Shown here piece after piece: positions 43,694-49,515 of a stretch of 64,000 nt of DNA (position 1 is its first letter; every line of letters starts with the position of its first letter). Under the pieces are notes generated by a model. The model did no database searches. It was given only the letters and a program-made list of their open reading frames with translations, and was not told where the DNA came from. The stretch comes from Leptolyngbya sp. SIO1E4. Lineage in GTDB: Bacteria; Cyanobacteriota; Cyanobacteriia; Phormidesmidales; Phormidesmidaceae. The stretch covers positions 186,001-250,000 of the forward strand of contig JAAHFU020000007.1 of assembly GCA_010672825.2 (NCBI GenBank), given 5' to 3'. A program made the translations under genes and the position numbers.

Positions 43694-44368
43694 TCAACCA
43701 GAGGAAGACATTGAAGCAGATGTAGAAGCCTGCTGCTGCTGGATTTGGTGTTCAATGCGTTGAAAGTCTCGGCTCACTTCTTTCCAGAGAGATTTGTTGT
43801 GGGGATCAAGACGGAGGGCCTTTTTCAGAGCGCGGCGAGCTTTTTCATAGTGCCCGTAGCGGATCAGGTACCGTGCCCAACGCTGGTAGGCGATCGCTTG
43901 CCACTGACGCACCTCTGGATCACGGGGCAAGCGCTGGGCCAGCCCATCTACCAAGGCAATTGCCCTCGGAAAGCGTTGAGTTCGAAAAAGTACCTGAAGC
44001 TGCTCAAACCCCCGTTGCTTCAAAGCATGTTCTTCTGGAGACAGGTTAGGGTTGACCTCAACGGTTACTTTGGGCGTTTGAGGTCGCGTAATCGTTACGG
44101 TTGGGCGCGATCGCGACGGCTCTTCCGTAGCAGCCTTGTGCTCAGCAGTTATACGGGTGGGTAAGGCATCTACCAAACACTGATAGGCCTGGGTAATGCG
44201 AATGAATTTCTCTTCCGCATCGCGATCACCAGGATTCACATCAGGATGATAGCGTCTTGCCAAACGACGATACGAGACTTTCACTTCCTCAAACGTTGCA
44301 TTGGGTCGCAACCCCAATACCCGCAATTCACTGACAAGCTGCCTTTGCACCGCCTCGTCTGCCTCCAA
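43694..44368 (-). CDS. J-domain protein with TPR-like C-terminal region
   Basis: The 224-residue product has an N-terminal J domain (residues ~13-70) with the HPD motif at 41-43 in [10 protein letters not shown], which stimulates DnaK ATPase activity. After a Pro/Thr-rich linker, residues ~115-205 form helical repeats ([22 protein letters not shown] and [18 protein letters not shown]) of TPR type, followed by a Gln/Ser-rich tail. It is a probable DnaK co-chaperone. The start codon TTG 44368 is uncertain; GTG 44350 is an alternative. It converges with the DUF2358 gene. Confidence 0.82.
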
Positions 44369-44578
44369 TCACTCGCAAATGGCCTTGAGCTTGAGCCTTA
44401 GTTGTTTGCCAAGACCTGATGTTAACCCAGACCGCTTAAAGAATATGGATAAGTCTATCCCTTTTCTCCAGAAAGTGACGCATGTATACAGCGTCGTAAT
44501 ATCTCCAGGGTCTATTTCCGTAACCAGCGTTATCTCTTTGGCTAGAATGTTTGACTAAAGATATCGCGCTTTAGCAAA

Positions 44579-44606
44579 AGACCCAGAACGGTCACGCTCT
44601 GGGTCT
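44579..44606 (-). terminator. Intrinsic terminator downstream of the clp genes
   Basis: Reading the - strand, AGACCCAGA and TCTGGGTCT form a perfect 9-bp stem (44606-44598 with 44587-44579), followed by TTTTGC. It lies 53 bp past the stop of the active clpP gene and fits transcription termination of the clpR-clpP unit. Confidence 0.75.
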
Positions 44607-44658
44607 AGTCAGTCTCTAAAGCCAACAGCAACACTTATGAGAACCAGGGGCAAAAGAT

Positions 44659-45288
44659 TTAAGCCGTAGCCGCCGCAATCGCTTCTGGGGTGCGCTCTTC
44701 AATCACCCGGTCGATAATGCCATACTCCGCTGATTCTTGAGCGGACATAAAGTAATCGCGATCGGTGTCTCGCTCAATTTGCTCAATGGATTTGCCCGTG
44801 CGCTCGGCCAACATTTCATTCAGCTCGTGCTTGACCCGAATAATCTCTTTGGCCTCAATGGCAATATCTGTTGCCTGTAACCGTTGGCGACCCGTTCCCC
44901 CCATCGGCTGGTGAATCATAATGCGGGAATGGGGGAGTGCCAGCCGCTTACCCTGAGTACCAGCCGCTAGCAGGAAGGCTCCCATCGAAGCTGCCAGGCC
45001 CAAACAAATGGTGACCACATCCGACTTGATGTACTGCATCGTGTCATAAATGGCCATCCCAGCGGTTACAGACCCCCCTGGAGAGTTGATATAGAGATAG
45101 ATCGGCTTAGAGTTATCTTCGGAATCGAGATAGAGCATGGCAGCCACAATTGAATTCGCGAGGCCATCTGTGACTTCTTGCCCTAAAAAGATAATGCGTT
45201 CCTGGTTAAGGCGCGTATAGAGATCAATCCACTGGGTGTATTGACTACCCGGTAGACGATAAGGAACTTTTGGGGTACCGATGGGCAT
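44659..45288 (-). CDS. clpP: ATP-dependent Clp protease proteolytic subunit, active form
   Basis: The 209-residue serine protease subunit has the complete catalytic triad: S101 in GLAASMGA, H126 in SRIMIHQP and D178 in DTDRDYF. It corresponds to ClpP3 of other cyanobacteria, which assembles with ClpR into a mixed core that works with ClpC. It follows the clpR gene by 64 bp on the same strand, the usual cyanobacterial arrangement, and is followed by a terminator. Confidence 0.93.
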
Positions 45289-45352
45289 AGTGCTTTTCTC
45301 TAGAATGCAAGAACAACAAAGACAAACAAATCGGGCAAGCTTTAGGGAGTGA

Positions 45353-46039
45353 CTAGTTTGCCATAGCCGGAGCTTTCGGCAGCTCTTTTGGACTTTCTAA
45401 AATGCGATCGATGATGCCGTAATCCTTCGCTTCTTGAGGATTCATGTAGAACATCCGGTCAGAATCTTGCATGACCTGCTCGATAGAGCGACCCGTATTT
45501 TTGGCCAAAATCTCCACCATAGAGCGCTTGTTATGCAGCACTTCTTTGGCCCGAATCTCAATGTCGGTCGCTTGACCCTGAGCGCCGCTCCGAGCTTGGT
45601 TTAAAACGATCCGTGCATGGGGCAAACTAGCGCGAAAGCCCTTTGTACCCGCTGACAAGATAATCGCAGCTGTTCCCATTGCTTGGCCGATGCAAATAGT
45701 ATGAACAGGAGGCTTAATGTAATTGATAGTGTCACAGATGGCAAAGGCCTCTGTGTCGTAGCCAATCATATTGCCGTCGTACCAGGAAGTCCCGGTGGAG
45801 TTGATGTAGAAGTAAATAGGTTTATCAGGGTCGTCGAACTGAAGATACAGAAGTTGGGCAATAATCAGCTCAGTGACATCAATGCCAACCTGCTGTTTTA
45901 CTTCGTCCGAAGAGTACAAAGGCAACCCAAGGTAAACGATACGCTCCTTCAGTAACAATGAAGGCAGATCAGGAGGTGGGGTTCGATAATAGGCATCGCC
46001 GTAGTATGGAGCTTGCATGGCGCGGATGGTTGAACTCAT
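45353..46039 (-). CDS. clpR: ClpP-like inactive subunit ClpR
   Basis: The 228-residue protein aligns along its length with ClpP but has lost all three catalytic residues: the serine position is G122 (GQAMGTAA), the histidine is N147 (RIVLNQAR), and the aspartate is M196 (DSDRMFYM). This is the known signature of cyanobacterial ClpR, a structural subunit of the ClpP3/R core. It lies upstream of clpP in the same operon. An N-terminal extension of ~30 residues is present. Confidence 0.92.
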
Positions 46040-46171
46040 AAATGAATGTAATCACCTGGGGTGCCCAGTTTTTAACATAGTAACGTGAGTAGGAGTTCCG
46101 TCAGGGGGCGGGATATCCTCACTTTTCATGAATCGTGGTTGTCCCGAAGTTCGATACCGGAGTTCTATCTC

Positions 46172-47410
46172 ATGAGTGTTGCTCTCCATTGTGCCCTCAG
46201 TGATTCTTATCTCGATAGTCATCAAACTGCGAGTCAACGGCAGCTGGCTATCTCCATCCAAGTTGTGGAGGAAAATAGCCTGGGGCACGCTCCGCTAAAT
46301 CTTGGCCTCGTGCTCGATCACAGCGGCTCGATGAATGGCCCCCCTTTAGCCACCGTTAAAGAAGCGGCAGGGCGCCTCGTCGATCAGCTTTCAGAGCAGG
46401 ATGTCTTATCCATTGTGGTGTTTGATCACCAGGCGAAGGTGCTCTTACCGCTGCAGTCTATGAGCGATCGCGACACGATTAAACGCCGTATTGCAACCCT
46501 TAAACCCAGCGGTGGCACCGCGATCGATGAAGGCATGAAGCTGGGTATTGAAGAAGCTGCCCAAGGCAAACAAGGCAAGGTTTCACAGCTCTTTTTGTTG
46601 ACCGATGGTGAGAATGAGCACGGTGACAATCAGCGCTGCCTCAAAATGGCTCAGGTGGCTGCAGACCATACGTTAACTGTCAACGCTTTGGGATTTGGCG
46701 ACCATTGGAATCAAGATATCCTGGAAAAAATTGCCGATGCTGGGGGAGGAACCCTGTCCTACATTGAGGCTCCCGAAGCTGCCGTTGAAGAATTCAATCG
46801 CTTATTAACGCGGGCGCAATCAGTCTTTTTTACCAATGCTTACCTTCATTTAACGCTGCTGCCAGGCGTTCGCCTGGCAGAACTTAAGCCGATAGCTCAA
46901 GTTGCCCCAGAGACCGTTGAACTCACATACCTGCAAGAGGGCAACGAAGTGGTTATTCGCCTCGGGGACCTGATGTCAGAAACCCCTAGGGTTGTGTTGA
47001 CCAATCTCTATATTGGCGCTCAAGGGGAAGGAACGTTTCCTATCGTCAAGGCGGCTATTCGCTATGATGCCCCCGCCACTGGCCAGGAAGGGCTGCAATC
47101 AGAACGTGTCACCGTCAATGCTACTGCCCAGAGCACCTATCAGCCCGCCCTTGACCAGGCGGTGCAAAAACACGTGCTCACCCTGGCCAAATATCGCCAA
47201 ACTCAGATTGCTGAACAAAAGTTGGCCACTGGCGATCGTCAAGGTGCGGCGACCTTGTTGCAATCTGCCGCAAAGACTGCCCTACAAATGGGGGACACAG
47301 GAGCTGCCACCGTTTTGCAAGAGAATGCAACTCGCTTACAGACCGGACAAGCTCTATCGGAACGCGATCGCAAACGCACGCGTATCGTCTCAAAAACGAC
47401 CTTGCAATAG
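46172..47410 (+). CDS. VWA-domain protein
   Basis: The 412-residue protein has a von Willebrand factor A domain at ~42-215 with an intact metal-ion-dependent adhesion site, DHSGSMN (D49, S51, S53), a conserved threonine in PSGGTAIDEG, and LTDGENEHGD. A beta-rich region and a helical C-terminus follow. ATG 46172 with CGGAG ten bases upstream is preferred over a frame opening at 46085. No signal peptide is visible, suggesting a cytoplasmic role. It stands one base before the epimerase gene in one operon. Confidence 0.85.
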   Translation: MSVALHCALSDSYLDSHQTASQRQLAISIQVVEENSLGHAPLNLGLVLDHSGSMNGPPLATVKEAAGRLVDQLSEQDVLSIVVFDHQAKVLLPLQSMSDRDTIKRRIATLKPSGGTAIDEGMKLGIEEAAQGKQGKVSQLFLLTDGENEHGDNQRCLKMAQVAADHTLTVNALGFGDHWNQDILEKIADAGGGTLSYIEAPEAAVEEFNRLLTRAQSVFFTNAYLHLTLLPGVRLAELKPIAQVAPETVELTYLQEGNEVVIRLGDLMSETPRVVLTNLYIGAQGEGTFPIVKAAIRYDAPATGQEGLQSERVTVNATAQSTYQPALDQAVQKHVLTLAKYRQTQIAEQKLATGDRQGAATLLQSAAKTALQMGDTGAATVLQENATRLQTGQALSERDRKRTRIVSKTTLQ

Positions 47411-47411
47411 T

Positions 47412-48467
47412 ATGCAGATCTCCGTCACGCCCTTTACTGTTCACAAACAGGTTCCGCTCACCATCAGCCGTGGAACCACGGCTAAGTCTACAAATCTATG
47501 GGTTCGTATTGTCGCTGATGGGATTGAGGGTTGGGGAGAAGCTTCCCCCTTCTCAGTCGGAGCGCACACGCAAACCCCCGAAGCCATTGCTCAGGAACTA
47601 TCCGCGCTGATTCCAGCCTTAGAGCCTTTTCACCCCTTACAAAGACAGGCAGTGGAGCCAGTTCTGGCATCAGTCGGGTCTGCGGCTCGCGCGGCTATTG
47701 ATGTCGCGCTCCACGACTGGTTGGGGAAACGGGTAGGGCTACCCCTGTGGCAACTCTGGGGGCTCGATCGCGATCGCATCGGCCCGACCGCTGTTACCGT
47801 GGGTCTCAGTGCACCAGACGCGGCCCGACAGCGATGGCAACGGTGGCAGTCTCAGGTTCCGACCGTGCAGTCCATCAAGGTGAAACTGGGTAACCCTGCA
47901 GGCATTCAAGCTGATCAGGCAATGTTCAGCGCCCTACTATCGGCAATCCCCCCCCAGACCAAGGTCAGCGTAGACGCTAACGGGGGTTGGCATTTGTCTG
48001 AGGCCCTGGAGATGGCAGACTGGTTAGCCGAACGGGGTGTTACCTATATCGAGCAGCCTTTGCCCGTAACCTTAGATGACGCGCTGGCGGAGTTGTCGGC
48101 GCGGTCCCCCTTACCCATTTTTGTTGACGAAAGCTGCTTTACTAGCCAGGATATTCCTCGTCTGATTGGCTCAGTTCAAGGTATTAATATCAAGCTGATG
48201 AAAGCAGGCGGGTTGTCTGAAGCACTACGAATGATTCATATTGCCCGTGCTTGCCAGCTTCAAGTCATGTTTGGCTGCTATTCCGACAGCGCTGTGTCCA
48301 ACACGGCGCTCGCTCATTTAGCGCCTTTGGCCGATCACCTCGATCTGGATAGTCATCTCAACCTGACCGATGATCCGTTTCAGGGCGCTACGATTCATTC
48401 AGGTTGTTTATTGCCCAACGATGCTCCTGGACTAGGGTTAACCCATCATGAATTACCTCACCGCTGA
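47412..48467 (+). CDS. Enolase-superfamily epimerase (Ala-Glu dipeptide epimerase / DgcA-like)
   Basis: From ATG 47412 the product is 351 residues; an open frame extends to 47013 only inside the VWA gene. The muconate-lactonizing subgroup pattern is complete: K156-x-K158, metal ligands D188, E214 and D239, and K261 in NIKLMKAGG. A DLDSHLNLTDD motif near the end recalls the acidic specificity motif of L-Ala-D/L-Glu epimerases. With a DUF1611 partner, as here, the known DgcA acts on N-acetyl-glutamate. Both functions remain possible. It overlaps the next gene by 20 bp. Confidence 0.85.
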   Translation: MQISVTPFTVHKQVPLTISRGTTAKSTNLWVRIVADGIEGWGEASPFSVGAHTQTPEAIAQELSALIPALEPFHPLQRQAVEPVLASVGSAARAAIDVALHDWLGKRVGLPLWQLWGLDRDRIGPTAVTVGLSAPDAARQRWQRWQSQVPTVQSIKVKLGNPAGIQADQAMFSALLSAIPPQTKVSVDANGGWHLSEALEMADWLAERGVTYIEQPLPVTLDDALAELSARSPLPIFVDESCFTSQDIPRLIGSVQGINIKLMKAGGLSEALRMIHIARACQLQVMFGCYSDSAVSNTALAHLAPLADHLDLDSHLNLTDDPFQGATIHSGCLLPNDAPGLGLTHHELPHR

Positions 48468-49515
48468 TCACCGCATTGCCCTACTGATGCATGAAGGCAC
48501 TGACAATTCTAAGGGCAAAACGGGCCTCGCCATGCTGCGGTACAGCCCCTTAGAAATCGTGGCAGTGGTGGATCAGCAACAGGCAGGCAAATCCCTTCAA
48601 GCTGTCACAGGCATTAACCGCGAGATTCCCATTGTGGCCTCTGTAGATGCGGCGCTGGCCTTCCAACCTACTGCCCTGGCAATTGGGATTGCCCCGTCAG
48701 GGGGCGCCCTACCTGACCCCTGGTATCAGGAAGTTAAAACAGCCGTAACCGCAGGTCTTTCCATCATCAATGGATTGCACACGCCCATGGCCCAGGATGA
48801 TGAATTATCGTCTTGGCTCCAGCCTTCCCAATGGATTTGGGATGTCCGTCAGGAACCGTCGGGTTTAACCATTGGATCTGCTGCCGCTCGATTGCTCCCC
48901 TGTCGCCGGGTACTTGCAGTCGGTACTGACATGGCGGTTGGCAAAATGTCTGCCAATCTAGAGCTGCATCGTCTGGCAGTCCAACAGGGACTACGTTCAA
49001 AGGTCATTGCCACCGGGCAAACCAATCTCATGTTGGGCGATAACGGTATTCCCTTAGATGCTGTTCGCGTCGATTTTGCAGCGGGAGCGGTCGAACAGCA
49101 GGTCACGCGCTACGGTGCTGACCATGACCTTTTATTTATTGAAGGACAAGGGTCATTGTTTAATCCTGGCTCAACGGCAACGCTGCCGCTGATGCGAGGA
49201 GCCCAGCCGACTCACCTAATCCTGGCCCATCGTGCTGGGCAAACCCATATTAAAAGTCAACCCGAAATCAAAATTCCACCGTTGAACCGTGCAATCTCCC
49301 TATATGAAGCGGTTGCCTCTGCCGGTGGAAGCTTTCTAGCTGCAAAGGTTGTAGGCATTAGTCTCAACACTCACCATCTCACCGAAAACGCGGCTCAAGA
49401 AACTATACAGGGTATCGCTCAAGAAACGCAGCTGCCCTGCACTGACGTGATTCGGTTTGGAGCGAAACCGCTGCTTGAGGCTATCTTAGCGGCGCCCATG
49501 CCTGTGGTACCTTAA
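48448..49515 (+). CDS. DUF1611 protein (DgcN-like)
   Basis: The 355-residue protein is a typical DUF1611 member with an N-terminal domain (RIALLMHEGTDNSKGKTGLAM) and a P-loop NTPase-like C-terminal domain whose GTDMAVGKM at 159-167 is the nucleotide-binding turn, followed by IEGQGSLFNP. DUF1611 includes DgcN, described as a D-glutamate N-acetyltransferase working with the enolase-superfamily DgcA. Here it starts inside the 3' end of that partner. It ends 32 bp before the stop of infA on the other strand. Confidence 0.85.
   Translation: MNYLTADHRIALLMHEGTDNSKGKTGLAMLRYSPLEIVAVVDQQQAGKSLQAVTGINREIPIVASVDAALAFQPTALAIGIAPSGGALPDPWYQEVKTAVTAGLSIINGLHTPMAQDDELSSWLQPSQWIWDVRQEPSGLTIGSAAARLLPCRRVLAVGTDMAVGKMSANLELHRLAVQQGLRSKVIATGQTNLMLGDNGIPLDAVRVDFAAGAVEQQVTRYGADHDLLFIEGQGSLFNPGSTATLPLMRGAQPTHLILAHRAGQTHIKSQPEIKIPPLNRAISLYEAVASAGGSFLAAKVVGISLNTHHLTENAAQETIQGIAQETQLPCTDVIRFGAKPLLEAILAAPMPVVP

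What the first reader, a model, noticed from the sequence alone, without database searches (positions are those of the whole stretch)
46172..49515. DgcA/DgcN-like D-glutamate gene pair with a VWA protein in a cyanobacterium
An enolase-superfamily epimerase and a DUF1611 protein overlap by 20 bp, the same pairing as DgcA and DgcN, which convert D-glutamate through N-acetylation and epimerisation in other bacteria. The VWA gene one base upstream is not part of the known system. The locus may recycle D-glutamate from peptidoglycan.
Basis: partly seen in the sequence, partly recalled or inferred. Interest (0 to 1): 0.55.

Follow-up and report, generated by a model that had tools for sequence, protein, structure and literature searches.

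The report
Cyanobacterial D-glutamate acetyltransferase–epimerase gene pair
Two neighbouring genes in a cyanobacterium look like a distant, reordered version of a known two-enzyme route that turns the mirror-image amino acid D-glutamate into the usual form; the third gene beside them is there by a local rearrangement.

Summary
The three genes exist as described: VWA 46172-47410, enolase-superfamily epimerase 47412-48467, DUF1611 48448-49515, with a 20-bp overlap. The pair is real and strongly coupled. In 292 cyanobacterial genomes each gene occurs in 83, the same 82 genomes carry both, and 6 of those keep both although unlinked. DUF1611 is a full-length structural homologue of the solved N-acetyltransferase DgcN, 7xrj (Z 36.3, 329 residues). 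Neither protein reaches the NCBIfam cut-off for DgcN (212 of 480 bits) or DgcA (196 of 400). Both fall in a cyanobacterial clade separate from DgcN/DgcA, with reversed gene order and its own active-site residues. The proposed refutation does not work: E. coli YcjG, an L-Ala-D/L-Glu epimerase, nests among DgcA proteins and passes the DgcA cut-off. The VWA gene is not part of the system: adjacent in 2 of 59 genomes holding both, it otherwise belongs to a clpP block. Best reading: a two-step N-acylation/epimerisation route for D-glutamate, possibly feeding arginine synthesis. Chemistry is inferred, not shown. New variant of a known kind.

The parts
47412..48467 (+). enolase-superfamily (MR_MLE) epimerase, DgcA/AEE-like, 351 aa; catalytic residues K156, K158, D188, E214, D239, K264, D311, D313; clade-specific Y290 and S314
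   Evidence: Pfam and NCBIfam; AlphaFold model pLDDT 96.7, closest dipeptide epimerases 3q45 and 3iji with Z 46; residue counts. The residue roles are recalled from the enolase superfamily.
48448..49515 (+). DUF1611 protein, DgcN-like putative N-acyltransferase, 355 aa, Rossmann-like N domain plus P-loop C domain (GTDMAVGKM)
   Evidence: Pfam; 2obn (Ava_3511) Z 51.0 and DgcN 7xrj Z 36.3 over 329 residues; 61% identity to 2obn
48448..48467 (+). 20-bp overlap of the two coding regions (translational coupling likely, inferred)
   Evidence: overlap also in the nearest relative G170
46172..47410 (+). VWA-domain protein, 412 aa; NOT part of the system (junction of two older blocks in this lineage)

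Best explanation
The epimerase and DUF1611 genes form a two-enzyme module that converts a D-amino acid, most likely D-glutamate, to the L form by N-acylation followed by epimerisation. DUF1611 puts an acyl group (most likely acetyl, from acetyl-CoA) on the amine of D-glutamate. The N-acyl amino acid is then a substrate for the two-lysine, metal-assisted mechanism of the enolase-superfamily epimerase (K156/K158 on one face, K264 on the other), which yields N-acyl-L-glutamate. N-acetyl-L-glutamate could enter arginine synthesis directly (ArgJ is present in this genome) or be deacylated by one of several M20-family hydrolases. Shown here: homology, fold, intact catalytic residues, co-inheritance, and presence of ArgJ and MurI. 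Inferred: substrate, acyl donor, direction, fate of the product. The VWA gene is not involved.
For: Co-occurrence: 82 genomes with both and 1 with only each gene (the lone ones being distant homologues), out of 292; 6 of the 82 keep both unlinked. Distance matrices of the two trees correlate at r = 0.92 over 87 paired loci (0 of 999 permutations as high; organismal relatedness inflates this). Gene order is DUF1611-epimerase in the Proteobacteria, haloarchaea and one other class of the phylum, and epimerase-DUF1611 in the window's class, so linkage was kept or regained through a swap. The pair appears as a unit in Planctomycetota and Proteobacteria MAGs beside the cyanobacteria in both trees. 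DUF1611 matches DgcN 7xrj over 329 residues. The epimerase's best NCBIfam model is DgcA, 196 against 136 bits for YcjG. The ISRG loop of DgcA is kept, with R20 in 99 of 110 rows. D-aminoacylase-like Amidohydro_3 genes recur near DUF1611 in two MAG loci, Sphingobium, Haladaptatus and Pseudoalteromonas CF6-2. MurI and ArgJ are present, so the pair is not needed to make D-glutamate.
Against: Both proteins are far below the DgcN and DgcA cut-offs and outside their clades. The cyanobacterial epimerases carry S314, which none of 50 rows outside this clade has, and Y290; this could mean another acyl group or substrate. The D311-x-D313 motif, which binds the free amine of dipeptides in AEEs (recalled), is intact, although DgcA keeps it too. 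The closest solved epimerases are dipeptide epimerases. No deacylase, transporter or regulator is conserved beside the cyanobacterial pair, unlike dgcR-dgcN-dgcA of CF6-2.
Confidence: 0.55

Rival explanations
1. The epimerase is a true L-Ala-D/L-Glu epimerase of murein-peptide recycling, and DUF1611 modifies the resulting dipeptide or a neighbouring intermediate.
For: Closest folds are dipeptide epimerases (3iji and 3ijq with L-Ala-D-Glu); the D-x-D motif is intact; AEE and DgcA are not separable by tree or cut-off; two S66 (LdcA-type) peptidases are in the genome.
Against: Four AEE loci were used as reference: three of the four carry an NlpC/P60 (C40) peptidase beside the epimerase (one also LdcA, one also M20), and the fourth, E. 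coli, had no annotation in the region. No DUF1611 is annotated in the three annotated ones, whereas the cyanobacterial epimerase is co-inherited with DUF1611 in 82 of 83 genomes.
Confidence: 0.2
2. The pair works by acylation and epimerisation, but on another D-amino acid or with a non-acetyl acyl group, as the clade-specific Y290/S314 residues suggest.
For: S314 in 54 of 55 cyanobacterial rows and 5 of 5 apparently transferred rows, 0 of 50 elsewhere; Y290 in 54 of 55 and 3 of 5, 0 of 50 elsewhere (with one row, L099, moved out of the script's cyanobacterial list because it is a Melainabacterium). Both sites follow the ends of strands 7 and 8, where the acyl group or N-terminal residue would sit (inference).
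Against: The ISRG loop, whose arginine is thought to hold the glutamate side chain (recalled), is kept in nearly all cyanobacterial rows.
Confidence: 0.2
3. All three genes, VWA included, form one functional operon.
For: One-base gap between VWA and epimerase; the same junction in G170.
Against: Adjacent in 2 of 59 genomes with both; 27 of 86 VWA genomes lack the pair. VWA lies beside clpP-type genes in G011, G215, G191, G289 and G185, away from the pair; in G215 the pair lies beside infA-adk on another contig.
Confidence: 0.05

Closest known systems
DgcN-DgcA D-glutamate pathway (Pseudoalteromonas sp. CF6-2 and relatives; Yu et al. 2023 ISME J, not held in the library, known here from citing papers and recall)
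   Same: Same two protein families, physically paired, overlapping or near-overlapping genes; full-length fold match to DgcN 7xrj; catalytic residues intact.
   Different: Reversed gene order, sequences far below the curated cut-offs, separate clades in both trees, different residues at 290 and 314, no DgcR-type regulator or D-amino-acid transaminase beside it.
L-Ala-D/L-Glu epimerases (E. coli YcjG, B. subtilis YkfB type, Bacteroides 3iji)
   Same: Same fold and catalytic residues, D-x-D motif; ISRG loop close to the IARG of YcjG.
   Different: The three annotated loci examined sit beside C40, LdcA or M20 genes, with no DUF1611 annotated.
Ava_3511, PDB 2obn (Anabaena variabilis DUF1611, no function given in its title)
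   Same: 61% identity, Z 51.0 over 345 residues.
   Different: No difference of note was found; it is the obvious test protein.
DUF1611 plus ornithine-racemase-like PLP protein (second DUF1611 subfamily)
   Same: DUF1611 gene directly beside a racemase-family gene.
   Different: The racemase is PLP-dependent (PF01168), unrelated to the enolase superfamily; the DUF1611 there is a separate branch.

Membership tests
DgcN (NF041892) | score over NCBIfam equivalog cut-off of 480 bits | tested here: not met
   211.6 bits; CF6-2 DgcN 493, haloarchaeal homologues 253-254
DgcN (NF041892) | same full-length fold as DgcN 7xrj | tested here: met
   Z 36.3, 329 aligned residues, 3.6 A
DgcN (NF041892) | falls in the DgcN clade | tested here: not met
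   DgcN 4-row clade (100) separate from the 62-row clade holding the window protein
DgcN (NF041892) | acetylates D-glutamate with acetyl-CoA | not testable with these tools
   needs an assay
DgcA (NF042940) | score over cut-off of 400 bits | tested here: not met
   196.2 bits; E. coli YcjG, an AEE, scores 422, so the cut-off is not a border of function
DgcA (NF042940) | gene paired with a DUF1611/DgcN gene | tested here: met
   window, and linked in 75 of 82 cyanobacterial genomes with both genes
DgcA (NF042940) | falls in the DgcA clade | tested here: not met
   separate 60-row clade, support 91
L-Ala-D/L-Glu epimerase (AEE) | KxK, metal ligands, second Lys and D-x-D motif | tested here: met
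   all present in the window protein; K156, K158 and E214 in 110 of 110 rows, the others in 107-109
L-Ala-D/L-Glu epimerase (AEE) | score over PRK15129 (YcjG) cut-off of 343 bits | tested here: not met
   135.8 bits
L-Ala-D/L-Glu epimerase (AEE) | epimerises L-Ala-D-Glu | not testable with these tools
   needs an assay
L-Ala-D/L-Glu epimerase (AEE) | murein-recycling genes beside it (usual, not strictly defining) | tested here: inconclusive
   no recurrent neighbour of that kind around the cyanobacterial pair in 37 loci plus the window, but only recurrent clusters were annotated

The most novel reading that the evidence does not exclude
DUF1611 is a general family of D-amino-acid N-acyltransferases that evolution has coupled to two unrelated racemases (enolase-fold and PLP-dependent). 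The cyanobacterial branch is a distinct system with its own acyl or amino-acid specificity (Y290/S314) that links cell-wall D-glutamate to arginine and nitrogen storage.
Probability: 0.25. Interest if true: 0.6.

Novelty: new variant of a known kind. Interest (0 to 1): 0.4.

Why it matters
It offers a testable function for a structural-genomics orphan (2obn, Ava_3511, released 2007) and for a gene pair found in 49 of 116 sampled genera of the phylum. If right, it connects D-glutamate turnover to N-acetylglutamate, the entry metabolite of arginine synthesis, in photosynthetic bacteria, and shows that the DgcA and AEE labels used in public annotation do not mark cleanly separate enzymes.

Tried and rejected
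Rejected: VWA as part of the system. Rejected: tree position as the test between DgcA and AEE, because YcjG nests in DgcA; long branches in that tree (MenC and MCI outgroups, Haladaptatus) make its deep root unsafe. Rejected: GcvH next to DUF1611 as a functional hint; it is confined to one planctomycete group, 4 loci. Rejected: D-glutamate supply as the role, since MurI is present. Led nowhere: a wider conserved neighbourhood; only within-clade synteny was found.

Literature: the original DgcN-DgcA paper is not held. Searches for DgcN with DgcA and D-glutamate, DgcN with N-acetyl and glutamate, DUF1611 (13), two of D-glutamate, N-acetyl-D-glutamate and enolase superfamily, dipeptide epimerase with cyanobacteria, D-glutamate with cyanobacteria and peptidoglycan recycling, DgcN as a whole word from 2022 (30 of 107 listed), D-glutamate with N-acetyltransferase, cyanobacteria and racemase from 2022 (83), and dipeptide epimerase with enolase superfamily and specificity showed no listing about this pair in cyanobacteria; that is absence from these listings of an open library only. 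Of papers I read only passages: PMC12363236, PMC10845958, PMC3605383, PMC9620832.

Rows dropped: the epimerase tree used 112 rows and the DUF1611 tree 123 rows, after leaving out listed near-duplicate cyanobacterial loci; some genomes still appear twice through overlapping loci. The motif count uses 110 rows (the two outgroups left out). The script's list of cyanobacterial rows wrongly held L099 (Melainabacterium), corrected in the text; L167, also in it, is a broken MAG gene and is the one exception.

Full report
Observation. The coordinates given are right. The window carries VWA 46172-47410, a one-base gap, epimerase 47412-48467 and DUF1611 48448-49515, all on the + strand, the last two overlapping by 20 bp. 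Pfam assigns VWA, MR_MLE_N/C and DUF1611_N/C. Each of the two enzyme genes is single-copy in the 8.2-Mb genome; the only other epimerase match is a weak partial one, 31% over 155 residues.

Coupling. In 292 genomes of the phylum, DUF1611 was found in 83 (E <= 0.001) and the epimerase in 83 (E <= 1e-20); 82 genomes have both. The two exceptions are G211, whose DUF1611 is a distant subfamily (32% identity), and G053, whose epimerase is 38% identical. Of the 82, 75 have the genes within 1.2 kb on one strand: 70 in the order epimerase-DUF1611 and 5, all of one family (f38) outside the window's class, in the order DUF1611-epimerase. One of the 75, G266, is a deletion remnant. G143 has them 2.0 kb apart, and 6 have them on different contigs or megabases apart (G011, G033, G045, G060, G185, G289). 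Keeping both genes when unlinked argues for shared function beyond operon hitch-hiking.

Other phyla. An epimerase lies within 400 bp on the same strand in 53, 0.8-1.5 kb away in 5, and was not found in the fetched flank in 22, some of them cut by contig ends. Haloarchaeal, most planctomycete and melainabacterial loci have DUF1611 first, as in dgcN-dgcA of Pseudoalteromonas CF6-2, Vibrio, Ruegeria and Sphingobium. The window's class, and some actinobacterial and eremiobacterial loci, have the epimerase first.

Membership. Against NCBIfam, DUF1611 scores 212 bits on DgcN (cut-off 480) and the epimerase 196 on DgcA (cut-off 400) and 136 on YcjG (cut-off 343). Controls: CF6-2 DgcN 493 and DgcA 412; two haloarchaeal pairs 250-256; E. 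coli YcjG 422 on DgcA, that is, over the DgcA cut-off. In the epimerase tree the window protein lies in a 60-row clade (91), and YcjG falls among DgcA proteins in a 6-row clade (100). In the DUF1611 tree the window protein lies in a 62-row clade (100) apart from DgcN. So the pair is DgcN/DgcA-like but not a member by these tests, and DgcA against AEE is not a distinction that sequence can settle.

Fold and residues. AlphaFold models are confident (pLDDT 95.1 and 96.7). DUF1611 matches 2obn (Z 51.0, 345 residues, 1.3 A), Thermotoga 2g0t (38.6, 327, 2.4 A) and DgcN 7xrj (36.3, 329, 3.6 A), then P-loop ATPases over the C domain only at about 14. The epimerase matches dipeptide epimerases 3q45 (46.3, 346 residues, 1.9 A) and 3iji (45.8, 331, 1.6 A), with N-acylamino-acid racemases at 39-40 and N-succinyl Arg/Lys racemase at 44.9. 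K156, K158 and E214 are invariant in 110 of 110 rows, and D188, D239, K264, D311 and D313 in 107-109. The cyanobacterial clade has Ser314 in 54 of 55 rows and in 5 of 5 apparently transferred copies, against 0 of 50 elsewhere (Gly 48, Ala 2); Tyr290 in 54 of 55 and 3 of 5, against 0 of 50 (after moving L099 to the outside group). At least five of the 55 rows are repeats from overlapping loci. What these residues do is inference.

VWA. By my reading of the coordinates, 59 genomes hold both VWA and epimerase and the two are adjacent in 2 (G000 and G170); 27 of 86 VWA genomes lack the pair. In G011, G215 and G191 the VWA gene is beside clpP-type genes and a DnaJ-TPR gene, as in the window on its other side; clp genes also flank it in G289 and G185. 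In G215, of the window's own family, the pair lies beside infA and adk, as on the window's other side, but on a different contig from VWA. The window junction therefore joins two older blocks.

Pathway context. MurI (277 bits, cut-off 147), ArgJ (528 bits, cut-off 298), two S66 peptidases and five M20 matches over the cut-off (plus one below) are in the genome. D-glutamate synthesis is thus covered, and N-acetyl-L-glutamate has a known use in arginine synthesis. That DgcN acetylates D-glutamate and DgcA inverts the product is recalled from Yu et al. 2023, which is not held; passages in PMC12363236 and PMC10845958 describe dgcN as the key gene of an irreversible racemisation pathway and DgcN-DgcA as converting D-Glu to L-Glu.

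A parallel module. A second DUF1611 subfamily lies directly upstream of an ornithine-racemase-like PLP gene in 6 of 6 loci examined. Two unrelated racemase families beside one DUF1611 family make a role of DUF1611 in D-amino-acid chemistry more likely, though the order of steps cannot be the same, since PLP racemases need a free amine (general knowledge).

Verdict. A widely conserved, untested enzyme pair, a distant variant of DgcN-DgcA. Mechanism class fairly likely (0.55), exact substrate and acyl group open.

Noticed in passing
L073:5385-7594, L195, L196, L197, L198, L058:2845-5129: A second DUF1611 subfamily lies directly upstream of an ornithine-racemase-like PLP gene (Orr 367-386 bits in the two scored, cut-off 480) in 6 of 6 loci examined: five cyanobacterial genomes and a Vibrio europaeus plasmid. 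Four of the five genomes also carry the enolase-type pair.
   Followed up: partly
window 43694-47410: VWA gene divergent from two clpP-type genes and a DnaJ-TPR gene, an arrangement shared with distant cyanobacteria; a VWA-Clp link may be worth a look.
   Followed up: partly
G266:C1:700783-701343: Remnant in which the start of the epimerase is joined to the end of DUF1611: both functions apparently lost in one deletion.
   Followed up: no
L057:1914-2921: E. coli YcjG passes NCBIfam's DgcA cut-off (422 over 400), so DgcA names may be given to AEEs by automatic annotation.
   Followed up: yes
L069, L070 (family f20): Downstream of the pair lie an Amidohydro_3 and an FAD_binding_4 gene on the same strand, conserved within that family only.
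   Followed up: no
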